Positions 48,256 through 62,508 of a stretch of DNA of 64,000 bases are shown here, in pieces (position 1 is the stretch's first letter; each line of letters begins with the position of its first letter). Source of the DNA: Halanaerobium kushneri (GTDB lineage: Bacteria > Bacillota > Halanaerobiia > Halanaerobiales > Halanaerobiaceae); assembly GCF_900156285.1 (NCBI RefSeq), contig NZ_FTNC01000008.1:1-64000 (forward strand). Direction: 5' to 3'. Made by a program: the position numbers and the translations under genes. The notes under the pieces are model-generated. The model was not told where the DNA came from. It saw only the letters and a list, made by a program, of their open reading frames with translations, and searched no databases.

Positions 48256-49746
48256 ATGGATAGAGCTAATACTGGTTTACATGAACGTTTAAAAAAGACT
48301 AAAGCAATAGCAGAACTGGGTCAGGGAATGGATACAGGGACACTAAACGAATATTCACACCAAATTGCCCTTTACCTGCTGCTTAAGGTTTTTAAACGCG
48401 AGATAAATAACAATGATCAGCGAAGCCGCAGTGATTTGATCCAGCTGACCGCTGACATTTTAAAGGAAATGCAGCTTAGAATAAATATGGAAGAAGTCGA
48501 AAGACTGGTGGATGGGGTTCTTTACTCAGGGGATCCCAAACAGCAGTCATATTTTCATGTCAAAATTTACGATGAAACTTCAGCTGAGTTTAAAGATTTT
48601 AAATACCGCTATTTAATTCCTGACCGGGAAGCTTCAAACTGGCAGGAAGGTGGTAGTACTGTCTACAGGCTCTCAGAAATTTCACAGGAGATTATTTTTA
48701 TCACTCGAGAGATCTTGCAGGAATTTGGTTTTGATTTAGAACAGTTCTATACCCTGCAGTTAATCAAAAACGGCAACTTTAAGGAGGCAAAGGGCAGTGT
48801 CAGCAATTTAATTGCCAGGGTTCGCAATCTGATTAAAAAGGAAAAGGACTGGCGGGAAGATATTTTGCGCAATCCTGGATTGATTTTTTCTGCCTATAAG
48901 GAGAGGCGGCGAAGAACTGAGGCTGAAGTTAGAGAACAGTTTAAAGAAGAGAAAAAAGTTTTCAGTGACATCTTTGTCTGGCGAGATAGACTGGATACTT
49001 TTGAAGATGCTAATCAAAAAGAAGGAGAACTCTTATTTGAAGAACTTGAGCGGGCCCGAGCTCTTCATGACTATCTGGCAGAACTGACAGTTTCTAATTT
49101 ATCCTTAGAACTGCAGCTGAGACGGGAAAATCCTGATATTTTCTGGCAGACCTCACGTTTGAGTTTTAAGAAGGATTTTTGGCAGAATACAGTGCTTAAA
49201 TCAGGGCTGCCAAAGATTGAAGACCTGGAAACAATGCTTAATCCCATATTTTCACCGGAGCAGGACTTCATTTTTCCTCTGGATTGGGCCTGGTCAGAAC
49301 AGCAGCTCTATAGTTATCTTGAAGAAAGTGAAGGAGAGGTTGAGGTAATGGAGATTGAATCAGCTCCAGAACGGGAAATTGACTGGGAACTGGCTGTTGA
49401 ACTCTGGCGGGATATTTTTCTTGAACTAAAAGAAAAGGGAGAATTTGAACTTACAGAACTTAATCAGCTTAGTATATCTCAAAAAGAAAAATGGCTCAGC
49501 CAGCAGCTTAATTTGGAGCTGTTTATGATGTTTATTATTACCGATATTAGATTAAAAAATGTAGAAGAATATCCGGGGCTGGATGAACGGCTGCTTTTAT
49601 TCAATAAGCTGCTTAAAGCTGAACCGGAACTGGCTGACCTGGAAGCTAGAAAAGTTTCGGCAAGGCTTACAGGCAGCAGCCAAAAAGTAAACCTGCTCGA
49701 TCAATTTATTATTTCACCCTATAAAATTTATCTGGAGGAAGATTAA
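48256..49746 (+). CDS. jetA: Wadjet-like JetA (kleisin/MukF-like subunit)
   Basis: 496-aa protein. The open frame starts at GTG 48220, but GGAGAGGG at 48243-48250 points to ATG 48256. It is mostly helical with a winged-helix-like N-terminus (TGTLNEYSHQIALYLLLKVF, RSRSDLIQLTADILKE) and long charged helices in the middle. Sequence similarity to the standard JetA families was not recognised; the call rests on position (first of four genes before an SMC ATPase and a JetD) and size. The role would be a kleisin that bridges the SMC heads, as in MukF/MksF. It is 1 bp from jetB. Confidence 0.65.
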   Translation: MDRANTGLHERLKKTKAIAELGQGMDTGTLNEYSHQIALYLLLKVFKREINNNDQRSRSDLIQLTADILKEMQLRINMEEVERLVDGVLYSGDPKQQSYFHVKIYDETSAEFKDFKYRYLIPDREASNWQEGGSTVYRLSEISQEIIFITREILQEFGFDLEQFYTLQLIKNGNFKEAKGSVSNLIARVRNLIKKEKDWREDILRNPGLIFSAYKERRRRTEAEVREQFKEEKKVFSDIFVWRDRLDTFEDANQKEGELLFEELERARALHDYLAELTVSNLSLELQLRRENPDIFWQTSRLSFKKDFWQNTVLKSGLPKIEDLETMLNPIFSPEQDFIFPLDWAWSEQQLYSYLEESEGEVEVMEIESAPEREIDWELAVELWRDIFLELKEKGEFELTELNQLSISQKEKWLSQQLNLELFMMFIITDIRLKNVEEYPGLDERLLLFNKLLKAEPELADLEARKVSARLTGSSQKVNLLDQFIISPYKIYLEED

Positions 49747-49747
49747 A

Positions 49748-50533
49748 ATGGCCTTTAATCAGGAAGAACTAGAAAATGGTTCAGCATTATTTTTCAAACT
49801 TTTAGAAGAACAGATTATTTCAGTTTCTGATCCCCTGGCAGAAAAGTACAGGACAAACAGTGAGGTACATAATATAGTTAATACAATGGCAGCAGAAGCC
49901 GGACTGAGAGTTTTTTCCACAGCTAAAAATGTGCATCTGGTTTCAAAGGCCAGAGGTTCGAGTTTTGCCAACTCCTATACCCAGATGAAGCAGAAAAAGG
50001 AGTATTCGGGTTTGAAACGTAAGCGCTACTTTTATCTGGCCAATATAATTATTTCAATTTTTTTAGCAGAGGTTGATAAGGAAAGTCATGTCCGGATTCG
50101 CTGGGAAGAAGAAGGGATTTCCTATCATCGACTTTCTGATCTGGTGACCTCAACTTTAGAGAGCTGGCTGGAACGCAAAAAGGAAGAGGATAGTTTTACT
50201 CAGAACTGGTCAATTGCAGTAGAGGAGGTAGCTGAGCTCTGGCTGACAGAATTTAGTGAATACAGACTTAATAAAGAGGAAAAAGTAGATGTGACAAGGA
50301 CTAAAGGTAATCGACTTTCCTTTATTAACACAGCACTTAAACCATTGACTGAACAGGGTCTGATTATTGATCAGAGTGATGAATTAAAGCTGATTCCTAA
50401 AGCCGAGTTATATGAACGTTTAGATGAGCTTTACCACAGCCAGAAACGTTACAATAAGTTTATGGATTTAATTTTAGAAAGCAGAAACGAGCTAGAGGAG
50501 GAAGATGAGCATGCCCAGACTGAACAAAATTAG
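49748..50533 (+). CDS. jetB: Wadjet-like JetB (KITE/MukE-like subunit)
   Basis: 261-aa protein starting at ATG 49748 after GGAGGAAG. It has winged-helix character in the N-terminal half (TNSEVHNIVNTMAAEAGLRV; LKRKRYFYLANIIISIFLAE), similar in kind to DUF6063-type JetB proteins of type II Wadjet, and a Glu-rich C-terminal tail. KITE proteins bind the kleisin and regulate the SMC ring. It overlaps jetC by 29 bp. Assignment is from context, size and secondary-structure character. Confidence 0.65.
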   Translation: MAFNQEELENGSALFFKLLEEQIISVSDPLAEKYRTNSEVHNIVNTMAAEAGLRVFSTAKNVHLVSKARGSSFANSYTQMKQKKEYSGLKRKRYFYLANIIISIFLAEVDKESHVRIRWEEEGISYHRLSDLVTSTLESWLERKKEEDSFTQNWSIAVEEVAELWLTEFSEYRLNKEEKVDVTRTKGNRLSFINTALKPLTEQGLIIDQSDELKLIPKAELYERLDELYHSQKRYNKFMDLILESRNELEEEDEHAQTEQN

Positions 50534-53500
50534 AATTACAGGAAATAAATATGATGGTTTTCAGAAACAGCACCGCAACTCAATCTTTGACCTGGAATCT
50601 GATCACAGCCTCTTTACTCTGCAAAATGGGAGTGGTAAAGGAGTAATGCTGCAGCTGATTTTTCAGCTGTTGATTCCTGGAACAGCCTGGGGAAAACGGA
50701 ATGGGAATAAGCTTGAGGGAATGTTTTATGATCGTTATCAATCATTTCAGCCCTATACCTTCCATGTTGGATTGGAATGGAGCCTTGATGGAGCTGATGA
50801 TAAAAAACTTTTGACTGGAATCTGTGTATCTGCACACAAGCAGCAGAGCACTAATGATGAGGAGGGAAAGGTAGGGCTAAAATACTTTCTCTATACCCAT
50901 CAGTATCAGGGTATGAGCCGTTTTAGTTTAACAAATCTTCCCCTTTATACTAAAAGCAGTGATCAGGTGCTGGAATATGAGCGGATGGAGGAATTTATCG
51001 ATCAAAATAGGGCTGATTTTATTAAGTATTCAAAAACTGCAGTTGAGCCGCTTAATTCCGAATATTATCAGTATTTAAGCAGCCACGGTATTTACCGCTC
51101 TGAGTGGGATATTATGAAAAACATCAACCGCAGTGAGGGAGGCCTGGAAAAATATTTTTCGCAGGCTAAGGATAATAAGGCACTTTTTGATCAGCTAATT
51201 ATTCCTGCAGTCAGCGAGAGTATTAGTTACTATAATGAACGGGAGAAAAATTCGCTGCTTAATATTTTTGTAGATAATGTAAAGATTGCCCATAATCTAC
51301 CTGAGCTATTATCCCGGCGTGAAGATCTAAAAACTCTCTCTCAGATGGTTGATCCTCTTTTAAATAATGCTGAACAGGGTCTCAGGCTTAAAGAAACTAA
51401 AGCTATGATTAGAGAGCGGGGAAATAATTATCTGCGCGGAATTGCAGATAGAAAAACTTTTTTAGAAAATGAGTTTCGTCGCAGTCAGCGTGATAAAGAG
51501 AAGACTGAGAATAGGATCAGAGAGCTTAATTTTGAGGCGGAAAATTTAAAATATGTTAAAAAATTGCGGTCTTTTGATCAACTTAAGGCAGAACAGGAAA
51601 AGGATGAGAAAAAACATCAGCAGTTAAAAGAGCAGCTTGAACAGTTGAAAGCAGAAAAACTACAGCTTCAGCTGAATAAAAAGTATTTAGAACTGAAAGA
51701 TCTGGAAGCAGCAGCTGCTGCCAGCAGAGAAAAAATTAATTCGCTAAAAGAAAGATCGGACTTTAAAGATCTGGAAGCAGAGATTAAAAAAATAAAGGAG
51801 CAGACAGCAGCAGAGATAGAAAATTTAAATGCTAAAATCAAGCAGTCAGCTGCTGGTTATTATTCTTATCAGAAATATCTAAAACAGGAACTTAAAAAAC
51901 TAGAAAATAAAGAAAAAAATATGGAGCAGAAAATTAGAGATGAGCAGCAGATAAAGCTTCAATATGAACATCAAGCGAAAAATTTAGAAGCGGAAAAAGA
52001 GAAGTTGGCTCAGTTTTTTAATCCGCTTGAGCTGGAAACTCCAGAGTATCTTTTGCAGAATCTGAAAAAAAATATAGAAAAATTAAATTCTAAATTGGAA
52101 AGTCTAGAAGAAGATTTAAAGCTGCAGCAGCTAAAGAAAGAGAATCTGCAGGAAGAAAAGCAGCAGACTGCAGTTGAGGCTGCCTCAAAAAAGATTGTAA
52201 CTGATAATTTAAGTAAAAAATTAAAAAAGCAGCAGCAGGCAGAGGAACAGCTTTTTGCTCAGCTGTTAAAAAGTCTAAATCTTGATAAATTTGAAGAATT
52301 CTACAGCAAACAGTGGCTGCAGCAGCAGAAAAATGAACTATTGAAATTAATTAGTGAGAAAAAGGAAAGCCTGCAGGAACTGAATGCAGATAAGTTTGAG
52401 CTTCAGCTTGATTTAAACTTAAATGACAGAGAATACTGGGTGGCCAGTTTGGAGCAGAAAAGGCTCTATCAGCAGATTAAAGAGCTGGATATTAGAGTCT
52501 ATTACGGCAGTCAATTTTTATTTGAACTGGTTGATGATCGCGAAAAATATTTAAAGGACTATCCTCAGCTCCCTTATGGACTGGTGGTAGTATATGAGTC
52601 AGATTGGGAAAAGATTAAAGCAAATATTACTCTAAACGAAATTTCTCACTATGCAGTTCCGATCTTTATTAATCATCAGCTGGATGGCGGAGATTCTGAG
52701 CTGCCCTTTAAACTGCTGACTGGCAAAGAAAAGAATTTTACTGAAGATAAAAATAATTTTGAACGCTGGTTCAGCGGCCTTAAAAATAAAGAAGCTGAGA
52801 TCAGAGAAACTATTTCTATTTTGGAGAGAAAACTTAAAAATCTAAATCAGCTTAATTATCAGGCAGAAACTATGCTGACAGAAGATTCAGCAGCTGAAAT
52901 AAAAACTGAGCTTGAAAAAGAAGAATCGGAACTGCAAAGCCTGCAGACAGAAATTAAAAAGTATGAGCAGAAAATTATAAATTCTGAAGAAAAAATTAGC
53001 CGCTTAAATAAGAAATATCAGAATCAAGAAAAAGAGCTTAAAAAAATAAATGAAAATCAGGAAAAGGTTGAGGCTTATCTGGAGGCCAGAAGAGATTTAG
53101 AAAACAAAGAAAATCGTTACCAGGAGGCTTTGAATGAAATTGCTCGTCTGGAGGGGCTGCTCCAAGAAAACAAAGCTGCACAGAAAAGAAATCAGAAAGA
53201 GGAAATGCAGCTGGAAAATGATTTTCAGAACTGGTTTCAGGATTATCAGATCTTTGCTGCTAAATTAAATGAAATATTGAGTGAGCAGGAGGCTGAACTT
53301 GAGAGTGAGTTTAATCAGGAAGAATTAAATATTTCCCCTCTAAAACAGTATCCTGAATTGTATAAATTTAGTCAGCATAGGTGTTATCAAAATCACGAAA
53401 AAATAATTTCACTCCAGAAAAAAGAAGAAGAAAAGGCAGCTGAGCTCAAATATCTGGAAGAAGGGCTGCAGAAACTTTTAACTGATATTAATAGTTCTAA

Positions 53501-54995
53501 AACAGAATTAAATCAGCTGGCAGCTGACTGGGAAGAGCGTGACTATGATTTCAAAAATCAAAGCCAGCTTAAGACTGCTCTGGAAGAAATTAAAGAACAG
53601 CTTAATAAACAGACTCAGCAAGCTCAAACTTTAAAAGAAGTGATCTTAGTTCGCAGGGGCCAGCTGGAGACAAAAGAAAATGAACTGAAAGAAAAGGCTG
53701 CTGAGATAAAAGAGCGTTTTCAGCGCTCGGTTCAGAACTGGGAGGAAGTAGAACTAAATATAAAAGAACTGGAAATTAAAAAAGAACTGAGTGAAAATAA
53801 GGACTATCTCTCCAAACTGGAAGAAATGATTTTAAATTATCAGGAAAAACTGCAGACCTATAATAATCTCAGCAATAAACTGGAATATTATCAGCTTGAA
53901 TCAGCAAAGGGGGAACTTAATGCCGGGATTAAAGAAGAACTCAAAGATTCTCCAGCAGCAGTAATTGAAAGCTGGGAAAATGACTATCGAAACATTGAAA
54001 ATAAGCTTAAAAGTCTGCGCGAAAAGACTGAAGATAATTTTTATAAATTTAAAAACGATGTTAAAGATGTAGTTGAAAATAATACATTAAAAAACAGCAT
54101 TAATGAAAAACTGCTGCATAATTTTAGGGCCAGTGATTATCAGTACAACTTTGAGATGCTCAATTCATTTAAAGAATATATTAATAATGAATTGAATACA
54201 ATTGATCGCAATAAGACGGAAGCAGAGGAGGCCAGACAGCAGTGGGCTGAGCGCTCTGCCATTCATGTAATGAGGTTAATAACTTCGATGAAGGAAATGA
54301 TTAGCAACATGGTCTATCACAATCAGCGGGGTTTTGCCTTTCCTTTAGTCAGACTGCGTCGTGATGATCTGCTGCCTGATGATGAGGAAGAGGTAATTTC
54401 AGAACTTAAGGAATATTTTTTAGAGTTGATCAATAAATTTAACAAAGAGGAGATTGATGTTGAGCAGCTCCCTGATTATAAACTTAAAGAATTCTGTGGA
54501 GATGCAGCACTTTTCTCCCGAGCTCTGCGCGGCCGCTACCCGGTACTTCAAGTTTATAAAATGACCGAAAAAAATGAGTTTTTACATGCCAGACCCCAGG
54601 ATTATTTCTATTCTGACTGGGAATCGGTGATTCAGGGTAAAGGTAATGGACCTGAAGGAAGTGGTGGTCAGTCACTTTCTATCAATGCTTTTATGATGAT
54701 GATGCTTCTAAATTATAAAAAACAGCGCTTTGACAAATCTAATCCCTGGACAGTGCTTTTTCTGGATAATCCTTTTGGTAAAGCGTCAGCAGCCCATGTA
54801 CTGGATCCGATCTTTAAAATTGCTGACAAACTTAATTTTCAGCTGGTCGCTTTTGCTGCGCCAGAGATTATTAAGACAGAAATAAGTGAGCGCTTCCCGG
54901 TCTTCTGGGCCTTAGAGATTGGTGATACTGAGCGCAACCGGGGAGTAGTACAGGGGCAGGTGATCTATGGTGAAAGACGAGCAAAAGTGGATTAA
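50505..54995 (+). CDS. jetC: Wadjet-like JetC (SMC/MukB-like ATPase)
   Basis: 1496-aa SMC-like motor. The N-terminal head has FTLQNGSGKGVMLQL (Walker A, K45). Long coiled coils cover about residues 300-640 and 755-1290, with a compact hinge in between (about 665-750). The C-terminal head has the ABC signature SGGQSLSINAF (S1386-Q1389) and Walker B LFLDNPFGKAS (D1421, N1422). Unusually, the residue after the Walker A lysine is Gly, not Ser/Thr. The family extrudes DNA loops and, with JetD, recognises and destroys small circular plasmids. ATG 50511 is an alternative start. It overlaps jetD by 29 bp. Confidence 0.85.
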   Translation: MSMPRLNKIRITGNKYDGFQKQHRNSIFDLESDHSLFTLQNGSGKGVMLQLIFQLLIPGTAWGKRNGNKLEGMFYDRYQSFQPYTFHVGLEWSLDGADDKKLLTGICVSAHKQQSTNDEEGKVGLKYFLYTHQYQGMSRFSLTNLPLYTKSSDQVLEYERMEEFIDQNRADFIKYSKTAVEPLNSEYYQYLSSHGIYRSEWDIMKNINRSEGGLEKYFSQAKDNKALFDQLIIPAVSESISYYNEREKNSLLNIFVDNVKIAHNLPELLSRREDLKTLSQMVDPLLNNAEQGLRLKETKAMIRERGNNYLRGIADRKTFLENEFRRSQRDKEKTENRIRELNFEAENLKYVKKLRSFDQLKAEQEKDEKKHQQLKEQLEQLKAEKLQLQLNKKYLELKDLEAAAAASREKINSLKERSDFKDLEAEIKKIKEQTAAEIENLNAKIKQSAAGYYSYQKYLKQELKKLENKEKNMEQKIRDEQQIKLQYEHQAKNLEAEKEKLAQFFNPLELETPEYLLQNLKKNIEKLNSKLESLEEDLKLQQLKKENLQEEKQQTAVEAASKKIVTDNLSKKLKKQQQAEEQLFAQLLKSLNLDKFEEFYSKQWLQQQKNELLKLISEKKESLQELNADKFELQLDLNLNDREYWVASLEQKRLYQQIKELDIRVYYGSQFLFELVDDREKYLKDYPQLPYGLVVVYESDWEKIKANITLNEISHYAVPIFINHQLDGGDSELPFKLLTGKEKNFTEDKNNFERWFSGLKNKEAEIRETISILERKLKNLNQLNYQAETMLTEDSAAEIKTELEKEESELQSLQTEIKKYEQKIINSEEKISRLNKKYQNQEKELKKINENQEKVEAYLEARRDLENKENRYQEALNEIARLEGLLQENKAAQKRNQKEEMQLENDFQNWFQDYQIFAAKLNEILSEQEAELESEFNQEELNISPLKQYPELYKFSQHRCYQNHEKIISLQKKEEEKAAELKYLEEGLQKLLTDINSSKTELNQLAADWEERDYDFKNQSQLKTALEEIKEQLNKQTQQAQTLKEVILVRRGQLETKENELKEKAAEIKERFQRSVQNWEEVELNIKELEIKKELSENKDYLSKLEEMILNYQEKLQTYNNLSNKLEYYQLESAKGELNAGIKEELKDSPAAVIESWENDYRNIENKLKSLREKTEDNFYKFKNDVKDVVENNTLKNSINEKLLHNFRASDYQYNFEMLNSFKEYINNELNTIDRNKTEAEEARQQWAERSAIHVMRLITSMKEMISNMVYHNQRGFAFPLVRLRRDDLLPDDEEEVISELKEYFLELINKFNKEEIDVEQLPDYKLKEFCGDAALFSRALRGRYPVLQVYKMTEKNEFLHARPQDYFYSDWESVIQGKGNGPEGSGGQSLSINAFMMMMLLNYKKQRFDKSNPWTVLFLDNPFGKASAAHVLDPIFKIADKLNFQLVAFAAPEIIKTEISERFPVFWALEIGDTERNRGVVQGQVIYGERRAKVD

Positions 54996-56112
54996 ACTTT
55001 TTGATAAATTTAAAAAAGATGAGCTTGGAGGCAGGATTCGCTTTTGCTTGATAGATTTAGAAAATTATATTAAATCCAGATTGGGAGGTGTTTCTGCTTA
55101 TCAGGCAGTTGGTGGTTATAAGAATCTCTATCAGTTTTTAAAAAAGTTGGAAGCTGATCAGAAAATTAGAGTAATAAAAAGTTCAGATTTCAACCAGCGG
55201 CAGCCCCGGCTTAAAAAACGGTGGCAGCTCATCAGAGTGCAGAGTTCAGGTTGGACTGATAAGGAGATTTTAAAACTATCCCGCCAGCTTGACCTCAGCT
55301 ATTATTTAAAAAGATCTGATCAGCAGACAGAAGAGTTAAAGCAAAAGCTTTTTAAGCTGACCAATTTTTTAGCCGGTAAAAATGAGCGGGAATGGGTCAG
55401 TAGAGAGGAGCGTTCCCTGGAATTATTTGCTGATGAGAAGTTTTTGAGCCAAGCTGCAGGGAAGAAACTTTTAAGCAACTTGAAATTGAGTCTGGATGAC
55501 TTAAAGGCACAGCAGTACAATCACCTTTTTGTTTACTGGACATTAGAACCCAATCAGATCAATAATATTTTGATTATGGAAAACCATTCAGCCTTTATTG
55601 GCGCCAAAAAAGCTCTGGCTGCAGGATTGAATATTTTTAACCTTGATTTTGATACTGTAATCTATGGTCAGGGTAAGAAAATTATCAGGAGTTTTAGCTT
55701 TCTGGAGGAGCTGATTGGTGTAGAAGTGGGTAAAAAGGGAAGAGAACTTGAAAATTCTAAAAAAGTTTTACGTCAGCGTCAGCAGAAAATTGAGGAATTG
55801 AATATTTACTATGCCGGTGATCTGGATCCCGAAGGACTGGCAATTTATAAGAGTTTAAATAATAACTATCCTGATTTTGAAATCAAATTACTGGGAGAAT
55901 ATTACCGGCTGCTTTTAGAAAAGAGTGAAAGATTTTATCCTTTTCAGAAGCAGCAGAATAAAAATCAGCAGGTTTTAGTGGAGGTGCTGACTGAACTTGA
56001 AGCTGAAGGATATGCTGAGCTTGGATCCGAGCTAAAACGTGCCTGGGAAAATGATCTTCGGCTGCCGCAAGAATTGGTGACAGTAGAAGTTTATAAAAAA
56101 TATTTTACTTAA
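54967..56112 (+). CDS. jetD: Wadjet JetD (TOPRIM-like nuclease)
   Basis: 381-aa protein. The N-terminal two-thirds is a JetD-type region (winged-helix/arm). The C-terminal TOPRIM-like domain (DUF2220-type) has the metal-binding acidic residues E205 in ILIMENHSAF and D285/D287 in YYAGDLDPEGLAIY. JetD is the nuclease that cleaves the plasmid DNA trapped by the SMC complex. It starts at ATG 54967 inside the jetC end, with AGGTG upstream. It is the last gene of the four-gene operon. Confidence 0.85.
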   Translation: MVKDEQKWIKLFDKFKKDELGGRIRFCLIDLENYIKSRLGGVSAYQAVGGYKNLYQFLKKLEADQKIRVIKSSDFNQRQPRLKKRWQLIRVQSSGWTDKEILKLSRQLDLSYYLKRSDQQTEELKQKLFKLTNFLAGKNEREWVSREERSLELFADEKFLSQAAGKKLLSNLKLSLDDLKAQQYNHLFVYWTLEPNQINNILIMENHSAFIGAKKALAAGLNIFNLDFDTVIYGQGKKIIRSFSFLEELIGVEVGKKGRELENSKKVLRQRQQKIEELNIYYAGDLDPEGLAIYKSLNNNYPDFEIKLLGEYYRLLLEKSERFYPFQKQQNKNQQVLVEVLTELEAEGYAELGSELKRAWENDLRLPQELVTVEVYKKYFT

Positions 56113-60690: not shown

Positions 60691-62508
60691 TTGTTTAAAA
60701 AATTAAATCAAAAAATCATTGATCATTACCTTGAATCTGTTCCCCAAAATGATTTGCAGCAGCTGTTGAGCAGTATTTTAAAAGATAAAGTTGAGAACAG
60801 TGATTTAACTGAGGATTATAAAAAAATAGCTGACTTTTATCAAAAAAGCAGAAAGAGGGCTGGAGCAGAAAAAGAGAAATTTCTCGAAAGGCTGGATTCT
60901 GAAAATCTTAAACTCGATGAAATCAGTTCTTTAGAGCTGGCTGAGGCCTTTTTTCCTGAACACAAACTCAATTATTCTCAAAAAACAATTGAAAATCTCA
61001 GGGAGCAGAGGAAGTTAAAAATAAATAAATTAAATGATAATCAGATTGAAGATCCTTTTGCTGAAATTTTATTTGCTTCCAATATTCTCTTAACAATGCC
61101 TGCTGATTTTAATAAAGTTAATCCGACTTTAAGAGAAAAATTGAATGAGTCTGAAAAACAGCAATATTTTTATGACCATCCGATACCTCTGGATATTGAT
61201 GATCAAAAAAATGAAATTATCTATGGACTTAAACATTTAAATCAGGCAGTTAAAGCTGAGACAGATCAAAGGCTTGACCTTCTTTTATCTATTTCTGTTA
61301 CCCATCCTTCAATTAATAAGATTGCAAGGGAATATATTGAGTCCAAGTTAGAAAATATTGAGCTTGAGCACTTAAATATCTATCTCTTTACTGAAAATGA
61401 AAGTGAAAAGCTGCTGGAAGAGTTTATACTTCCTTTTATAAGTGATGGAATAAAGGCTTCAGATCTTAAAAGTACAGTGGGAGCTGCCGGCAGCTACGGA
61501 CGCCATTATTCATTTTTAAAGGCGGTGGCCCTCTGGTGGCAGAAATATATTAATTCCGATTTAAAAGCTACTTTTAAAATTGATCTGGACCAGGTTTTTG
61601 ACCAGCAGAAGCTGAAAGAAGAAACAGGCCATTATGCCTTTGAAAATTTCAAATCTCCTCTCTGGGGAGCCCGGGCAGTTGACAGTCAGGGAAGAAGAGT
61701 TGAGCTTGGAATGATTGCCGGTCAGCTCGTCAATGACAGTGATATTGAAAAATCAATTTATGAGCTGGATATCAAAAGACCGAAAGCTGAGCTTAAATAT
61801 GATCAGTATATTTTCTTTAAAGCAAAGCCCCAGTATATTTCTACTGCAGCTGAAATGGGGTATAGAGCAGATTCTAAAATTGATACAATTTTACGCTACC
61901 ATGTCACCGGTGGTACTAATGGTATTTTGATTAAAGCTCTAAAAAAATATAAGCCCTTCTGTCCGACTTTTATCGGCAGAGCTGAGGACCAGGCCTATCT
62001 GCTTTCAGTTTTGTTTGAAGAGCATGATTCATCCTATTTGAGGTATTATCATCAGGATGGTCTGATTATGAGGCACGATAAAAAGAGTTTTATCGGAACA
62101 GAGATTAAAAACTCTAAAATTTCAAAGCTGATAGGTGATTATGAGCGGATTATAATTTTTTCTCATTATGTTAGGAATATTTTAAATGATTATCAGCGGC
62201 TGAGGGAAGAATTATTTCCCTTTACAGCAGCTTTTATCAGTCAGATTCCGGTTTTATTAATTTATTACCGCTCAATTTTAAAAGCTTATCAGCTGGCTGA
62301 GAGTGATGAAAATCAGGCTCTTGATTTTTTAACTGAGCTGACAGAGAGACTTGAGGATATTTATAATAAAGTTGACCAAAATTATTATCAGCAGAGATTT
62401 TTGCTGGAGAAAAAAGTCTGGAATGAATATTATCAGATTTTAGATGATGAAAAAGTTGAAGATCAAAAATTATTGGATGGTTTTACAACTAGAATAAAAA
62501 TTAAGTAA
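60691..62508 (+). CDS. 605-aa protein of unknown function in a sugar operon
   Basis: No family was recognised. The start is TTG 60691 after GCAGGGAGG. The N-terminal part is charged and helical. Residues about 265-460 have more conserved-looking motifs (GAAGSYGRHYSFLKAVALWW, SPLWGARAVDSQGRRVELG, and YHVTGGTNGILIKALKKY before FIGRAEDQAYLL), and the GRAEDQ may act like the ED motif of GT-A glycosyltransferases, an unproven idea. No signal peptide or transmembrane helix is seen. It lies between the importer and a GT4-like glycosyltransferase, 7 bp from the latter, so it probably works on the same sugar or glycoside. Confidence 0.6.
   Translation: MFKKLNQKIIDHYLESVPQNDLQQLLSSILKDKVENSDLTEDYKKIADFYQKSRKRAGAEKEKFLERLDSENLKLDEISSLELAEAFFPEHKLNYSQKTIENLREQRKLKINKLNDNQIEDPFAEILFASNILLTMPADFNKVNPTLREKLNESEKQQYFYDHPIPLDIDDQKNEIIYGLKHLNQAVKAETDQRLDLLLSISVTHPSINKIAREYIESKLENIELEHLNIYLFTENESEKLLEEFILPFISDGIKASDLKSTVGAAGSYGRHYSFLKAVALWWQKYINSDLKATFKIDLDQVFDQQKLKEETGHYAFENFKSPLWGARAVDSQGRRVELGMIAGQLVNDSDIEKSIYELDIKRPKAELKYDQYIFFKAKPQYISTAAEMGYRADSKIDTILRYHVTGGTNGILIKALKKYKPFCPTFIGRAEDQAYLLSVLFEEHDSSYLRYYHQDGLIMRHDKKSFIGTEIKNSKISKLIGDYERIIIFSHYVRNILNDYQRLREELFPFTAAFISQIPVLLIYYRSILKAYQLAESDENQALDFLTELTERLEDIYNKVDQNYYQQRFLLEKKVWNEYYQILDDEKVEDQKLLDGFTTRIKIK

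What the first reader, a model, noticed from the sequence alone, without database searches (positions are those of the whole stretch)
48256..56112. Complete Wadjet/MksBEFG-like plasmid defence operon with atypical JetA and JetB
Four tightly packed genes (gap of 1 bp, then two 29-bp overlaps) encode 496-, 261-, 1496- and 381-aa proteins. The third is an SMC ATPase with head, coiled coil, hinge, coiled coil, head. The fourth has JetD's E...DxD TOPRIM-like residues (E205, D285, D287). This is the JetABCD layout, which is known to cleave small circular plasmids. JetA and JetB did not look like the standard type I or type II families by eye; JetB has DUF6063-like character. It could be a divergent subtype, in an organism group where such systems are little studied.
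Basis: partly seen in the sequence, partly recalled or inferred. Interest (0 to 1): 0.75.

Follow-up and report, generated by a model that had tools for sequence, protein, structure and literature searches.

The report
Type III Wadjet plasmid-defence operon
This is a complete, apparently functional copy of a catalogued bacterial plasmid-defence system (Wadjet type III) in Halanaerobium; the one surprise is that its DNA motor protein, like every type III relative checked, lacks the glutamate that such motors normally use to burn ATP.

Summary
In detail: jetA, jetB, jetC and jetD lie tightly packed at 48256-56112. It is Wadjet, but JetA and JetB are not atypical. All four proteins match PADLOC type III models end to end or nearly so (JetA3 624 bits, JetB3 309, JetC3 627, JetD3 291); JetB is also Pfam DUF6063. 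The operon is present in 8 of 12 Halanaerobium genomes, syntenic in several, and under purifying selection.

Two things go beyond "another type III Wadjet". (1) JetC has Asn (D-N-P-F) where SMC ATPases have the Walker B catalytic Glu. This holds in 38/38 full-length type III JetCs aligned here (Bacillota), plus two more read directly, against Glu in 12/12 type II, 10/10 type I and the genome's own SMC. The window's clade also lacks the Walker A Ser/Thr (GKG). Type III may therefore hydrolyse ATP slowly, unconventionally or not at all, so loop extrusion cannot simply be assumed. No paper held here mentions this. (2) The usual type III gene order is D-A-B-C; A-B-C-D is confined to one clade, consistent with a single rearrangement.

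Verdict: a new member of a known kind, carrying a testable family-wide oddity.

The parts
48256..49746 (+). jetA, type III kleisin-like subunit, 496 aa
   Evidence: PADLOC JetA3 PDLC00565, E 3.2e-188, residues 1-496 on profile 1-497 of 498; Shine-Dalgarno upstream
49748..50533 (+). jetB, type III KITE-like subunit, 261 aa, DUF6063
   Evidence: PADLOC JetB3 PDLC00573, E 5.4e-93; Pfam PF19539 71.4 bits against a cut-off of 27
50511..54995 (+). jetC, type III SMC-like ATPase, 1494 aa (the ORF opens at 50505; 50511 is the likelier start)
   Evidence: PADLOC JetC3 PDLC00586, E 1.8e-188; conservation pattern; Shine-Dalgarno spacing
50625..50642 (+). Walker A of JetC, N-G-S-G-K-G (residues 39-44 counted from 50511): Gly in place of the usual Ser/Thr after the Lys
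54657..54674 (+). ABC signature of JetC, G-S-G-G-Q-S (residues 1383-1388)
54765..54779 (+). Walker B end of JetC, D-N-P-F-G (residues 1419-1423): Asn1420 in place of the catalytic Glu
   Evidence: 38/38 type III JetC have Asn here; type I 10/10, type II 12/12 and own SMC have Glu; the same columns pair in profile-profile alignment
54967..56112 (+). jetD, type III Toprim-type nuclease, 381 aa
   Evidence: PADLOC JetD3 PDLC00591, E 4.3e-87; Pfam JetD_C PF09983 32.7 bits against a cut-off of 22
55579..55581 (+). JetD Glu205, presumed metal ligand
   Evidence: invariant in 16 JetD; end of a predicted strand 200-205 (low-confidence model)
55819..55827 (+). JetD Asp285-Leu-Asp287, presumed metal ligands
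   Evidence: both Asp invariant in 16 JetD; just after a predicted strand 279-283

Best explanation
It is a complete, functional chromosomal Wadjet type III operon of Halanaerobium. JetA (kleisin-like), JetB (KITE-like) and the dimeric SMC-like JetC form a DNA-entrapping complex. It recognises invading DNA, most likely small circular plasmids, and licenses the JetD Toprim nuclease to cut it. Shown here: identity as type III, intact reading frames, conserved JetD acidic triad, purifying selection, persistence in the genus. Inferred from type I Wadjet: subunit roles, the plasmid target and cleavage. Also shown: JetC lacks the canonical Walker B glutamate. Inferred: its ATP cycle is not the standard SMC one; I favour ATP-binding-driven head engagement with slow or non-canonical hydrolysis.
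For: All four proteins match type III PADLOC models. JetB is DUF6063 and JetD carries JetD_C. E205, D285 and D287 are invariant. No type I or type II JetC is found in the genome: PDLC00516 finds none at E <= 1e-50 and PDLC00551 gives only coiled-coil-level matches. The housekeeping SMC is a separate gene, L125. The operon is in 8 of 12 genus genomes with conserved neighbours and dN/dS of 0.01-0.06 for JetA/B, 0.08-0.11 for JetC and 0.19-0.26 for JetD. Wadjet protects against plasmids and JetD/MksG is a nuclease in types studied by others (PMC10586767, PMC10123090, PMC12287153).
Against: No activity was tested. Predicted models of JetD and JetA were low confidence (pLDDT 57 and 45). The JetD fold search gave no significant match, although several Toprim proteins were among the top hits. 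No solved Wadjet relative was found by sequence for any subunit. The target (plasmid or phage) is extrapolated from type I. The missing Walker B Glu argues against simply copying the type I motor mechanism.
Confidence: 0.88

Rival explanations
1. Type III Wadjet is a catalytically dead or near-dead SMC ATPase: ATP binding locks JetC heads once around DNA, and defence is triggered by this one-shot clamp rather than by loop extrusion. (A rival about mechanism within the same identification.)
For: Asn replaces the catalytic Glu in 38/38 type III JetC and the D-loop Asp is mostly Ser; the window's clade also lacks the Walker A Ser/Thr. The equivalent Glu-to-Gln change in type I MksB (E1042Q) impairs ATPase (PMC10123090). 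A natural Glu-to-Gln change in Lamassu LmuB was taken to suggest little or no hydrolysis (PMC10586767).
Against: Walker A Lys, Walker B Asp and the signature Ser are 38/38 conserved. Invariant Glu89 and Glu209 in the N-terminal head region could act instead; no structure is available. Asn is not Gln, and its effect has not been measured.
Confidence: 0.4
2. Type III JetC hydrolyses ATP normally through a different general base, so it is a loop extruder like type I. (A rival about mechanism within the same identification.)
For: Strong purifying selection on JetC, conserved Lys, Asp, signature and Gln1444, and invariant Glu89 and Glu209 leave room for another catalytic residue.
Against: No known compensating residue; the D-loop is changed too.
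Confidence: 0.4
3. A divergent or new Wadjet subtype with novel JetA and JetB.
For: JetA has no Pfam or NCBIfam match; the A-B-C-D order differs from most type III; distant type III JetA score only 16-59 bits against this clade's JetA profile.
Against: Nearly full-length matches to existing PADLOC type III models for all four proteins.
Confidence: 0.06
4. A chromosome-organising MukBEF/condensin-like complex, not defence.
For: SMC plus kleisin plus KITE anatomy; stable location and strong constraint in the genus.
Against: Carries JetD with an intact Toprim triad; patchy presence, 8 of 12 genus genomes; the housekeeping SMC is present separately.
Confidence: 0.05

Closest known systems
Wadjet type III (PADLOC JetA3/JetB3/JetC3/JetD3; JetB = Pfam DUF6063)
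   Same: All four proteins match its models over full or most length; JetC has D-N-P-F at Walker B, as in nearly every other type III checked (one reads D-N-L-F)
   Different: Gene order A-B-C-D instead of the commoner D-A-B-C; Walker A GKG as in its own clade, where most other type III have GKS/GKT
Wadjet type I (JetABCD / MksBEFG, e.g. Corynebacterium glutamicum MksBEFG)
   Same: Four-subunit plan and JetD-type Toprim nuclease
   Different: Different families; JetC is about 1100 aa with canonical Walker A GKS and Walker B DEAF; type I JetD models match only weakly and partially
Wadjet type II (e.g. Neobacillus vireti nvJET)
   Same: Four-subunit plan; long JetC
   Different: JetC has GKS and DEAF; only JetC (E 0.043) and JetD (E 1.9e-6) give faint matches to type II models
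Lamassu LmuB (as described in PMC10586767)
   Same: SMC/Rad50-like defence ATPase in which the Walker B Glu is naturally replaced
   Different: Glu to Gln rather than Asn; different partners and effector; much shorter protein

Membership tests
Wadjet type III | JetA3, JetB3, JetC3 and JetD3 profile matches in one operon | tested here: met
   E 3e-188, 5e-93, 2e-188 and 4e-87 in adjacent genes
Wadjet type III | DUF6063 JetB | tested here: met
   PF19539 71.4 bits, cut-off 27
Wadjet type III | JetD with JetD_C/Toprim acidic residues | tested here: met
   PF09983 over cut-off; E205, D285, D287 invariant in 16
Wadjet type III | Toprim and CAP fold of JetD | tested here: inconclusive
   Model pLDDT 57; no significant PDB fold match, Toprim proteins among the weak top hits
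Wadjet type III | D-A-B-C order usual for the type in this sample (a common trait, not a defining rule) | tested here: not met
   window clade is A-B-C-D, nearly all others D-A-B-C; one change on the JetA tree
Wadjet type III | Anti-plasmid activity | not testable with these tools
   Needs a transformation assay
Wadjet type I | Best match to JetA1-D1 models, JetC about 1100 aa with DEAF | tested here: not met
Wadjet type II | Best match to JetA2-D2 models, JetC with DEAF | tested here: not met
Canonical SMC ATPase site | Walker B catalytic glutamate | tested here: not met
   Asn in 38/38 type III; aligned with Glu of types I and II
Canonical SMC ATPase site | Walker A Lys, ABC signature Ser, Walker B Asp | tested here: met
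   Lys43, Ser1384, Asp1419 38/38
Canonical SMC ATPase site | Ser/Thr after the Walker A Lys | tested here: not met
   GKG in the window and its clade; GKS/GKT in 22 of 38 type III

The most novel reading that the evidence does not exclude
All Wadjet type III systems work with an SMC ATPase that has lost the canonical hydrolysis machinery: both identical active sites of the JetC dimer carry Asn for the catalytic Glu and, in the window's clade, also lack the Mg-coordinating Ser/Thr. They would sense and cut circular DNA without classic ATP-driven loop extrusion, by a one-shot ATP-binding clamp or by an unrecognised catalytic residue.
Probability: 0.4. Interest if true: 0.75.

Novelty: new member of a known kind. 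Interest (0 to 1): 0.42.

Why it matters
As an operon it adds another type III Wadjet, in a halophilic anaerobe whose genetic tractability such systems may limit. The JetC active-site change matters more: current accounts of Wadjet rest on ATP-hydrolysing loop extrusion studied in types I and II. If a whole type naturally lacks the hydrolysis glutamate, one can ask directly whether hydrolysis and loop extrusion are needed for plasmid recognition and cleavage at all, with a natural parallel in Lamassu LmuB.

Tried and rejected
A new Wadjet subtype: rejected by type III models. Housekeeping SMC or MukB: rejected, the genome's SMC is elsewhere. Motif decay as the reason for Asn: rejected, since Asn is 38/38 conserved and JetC dN/dS is about 0.1. 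Misalignment of Walker B: checked by MAFFT on 58 C-termini and by profile-profile alignment, where D-N-P-F pairs with D-E-A-F in both types I and II. An exact empty site could not be defined: G011 has the LacI-transporter block without Wadjet, but its upstream flank differs. The genome-contig scan returned only close relatives. Type III outside Bacillota was not reached; plasmids gave two Bacillota hits and phages none. The promoter scan was at chance level and was not used.

Full report
Observation. Two refinements: jetA has a good Shine-Dalgarno before 48256, and jetC more likely starts at 50511, about 9 nt after AGGAGG, giving 1494 aa. JetC numbering below counts from 50511.

Identity. PADLOC places all four in Wadjet type III: JetA3 PDLC00565 624 bits over residues 1-496 of 496, JetB3 PDLC00573 309 bits, JetC3 PDLC00586 627 bits, JetD3 PDLC00591 291 bits. 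Matches to type I or II models are weak and partial and concern only JetC and JetD. Pfam finds DUF6063 in JetB and JetD_C in JetD; JetA and JetC have no Pfam match, which explains why JetA looked unfamiliar. NCBIfam adds nothing useful. JetD E205, D285 and D287 are invariant in 16 relatives.

Host and context. The nearest named relatives are Halanaerobium species, so the host is a Halanaerobium. The operon lies between a sugar-acid gene, a 3-dehydro-L-gulonate 2-dehydrogenase relative, and a LacI regulator with a sugar transporter. A JetD relative is found in 8 of 12 genus genomes. The LacI gene lies downstream in G001, G003, G004 and G005, and the dehydrogenase upstream in G001, G003, G004 and G009. 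Pairwise dN/dS is 0.01-0.06 for JetA and JetB, 0.08-0.11 for JetC and 0.19-0.26 for JetD (some dS values are near saturation). The operon is maintained, not decaying. The genome has its own SMC on another contig and no other JetD relative.

The ATPase site. JetC has Walker A N-G-S-G-K-G, signature G-S-G-G-Q-S and Walker B L-F-L-D-N-P-F. In an alignment of C-terminal regions, the residue after the Walker B Asp is Asn in 35/35 type III JetC, and Glu in 12/12 type II, 10/10 type I and the genome's own SMC. A wider type III set gives 38/38 Asn, with Asp1419, Lys43 and Ser1384 also 38/38. Two further type III JetCs outside that set, an intron-split copy in L040 and one on a Pontibacillus megaplasmid, also read D-N-P-F. 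Independent profile-profile alignment pairs D-N-P-F with D-E-A-F in both type I (E 2.9e-5) and type II (E 1.1e-4). The D-loop Asp of types I and II is mostly Ser in type III. The Ser/Thr after the Walker A Lys is Gly in 16 of 38: the window's clade (L031-L042, L139-L141, L152) and the distant L072, two changes on the JetA tree. All sampled genomes are Bacillota, many sequences are related, and near-identical Halanaerobium copies are counted separately.

What this implies. In type I MksB the Glu-to-Gln mutant E1042Q is described as hydrolysis-deficient, with impaired ATPase (PMC10123090). A review notes a natural Glu-to-Gln change in Lamassu LmuB and infers low or no hydrolysis (PMC10586767). 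I found no statement about type III Walker B in the papers held; the library leaves out most subscription papers, including the original 2018 Wadjet paper that I tried, so this may be known elsewhere. One paper notes that Wadjet-III lacks a hinge channel (PMC12647877). Whether Asn abolishes hydrolysis is inference; invariant Glu89 and Glu209 could compensate.

Gene order. Nearly all type III operons examined with all four genes visible are D-A-B-C; A-B-C-D occurs only in L031-L042 (L043 shows C-D). On a JetA tree the A-B-C-D group is one side of a branch (SH-aLRT 93), one change. The tree is a quick search with long branches elsewhere.

Structure. AlphaFold models of JetD (pLDDT 57) and JetA (45) are weak. 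In the JetD model E205 ends a strand and D285/D287 follow another, as in Toprim domains, but the PDB fold search was not significant. I treat the fold as supported by sequence families, not by these models.

Conclusion. The finding is a genuine but catalogued Wadjet type III operon. Its main value is that it led to a family-wide departure from the canonical SMC ATPase site that is simple to test.

Noticed in passing
L040:8022-9872 (genome G025): jetC is interrupted right after the ABC signature (SGGQS) by an insert of about 1.85 kb encoding a 431-aa protein that looks like a group II intron reverse transcriptase (by eye); the reading frame resumes at MMMMLLNYKKQ and still carries DNPFG.
   Followed up: partly
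L140, L141 (genomes G271, G080, one genus): Type III jetA-jetB-jetC with no recognised jetD beside it; in L140 the flanking genes are a threonyl-tRNA synthetase-like gene, an acetyltransferase, a TPM-domain protein and a NAGPA protein. A JetABC complex without its nuclease, or with JetD elsewhere.
   Followed up: partly
L039 and L045 (genome G022): One genome carries two type III Wadjets, one in A-B-C-D and one in D-A-B-C order.
   Followed up: no
L153:1644-10077 (Pontibacillus sp. ALD_SL1, 898-kb plasmid NZ_CP062975.1): A type III Wadjet in D-A-B-C order with an unusually long JetC (about 1705 aa), carried on a megaplasmid.
   Followed up: partly
L037:2250-7250: Between jetD and the LacI gene this Halanaerobium relative has broken TnpB-like transposon ORFs and a 650-aa protein with a SEC-C-like zinc motif (by eye).
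   Followed up: no
L068:2742-7112 (genome G056): Type III jetC split into two ORFs (about 996 and 440 aa): a broken gene, an insertion or a sequencing error.
   Followed up: no
window 60691-62508: A 605-aa ORF (TTG start) beside a glycosyltransferase, with no Pfam match at E 1e-5.
   Followed up: no
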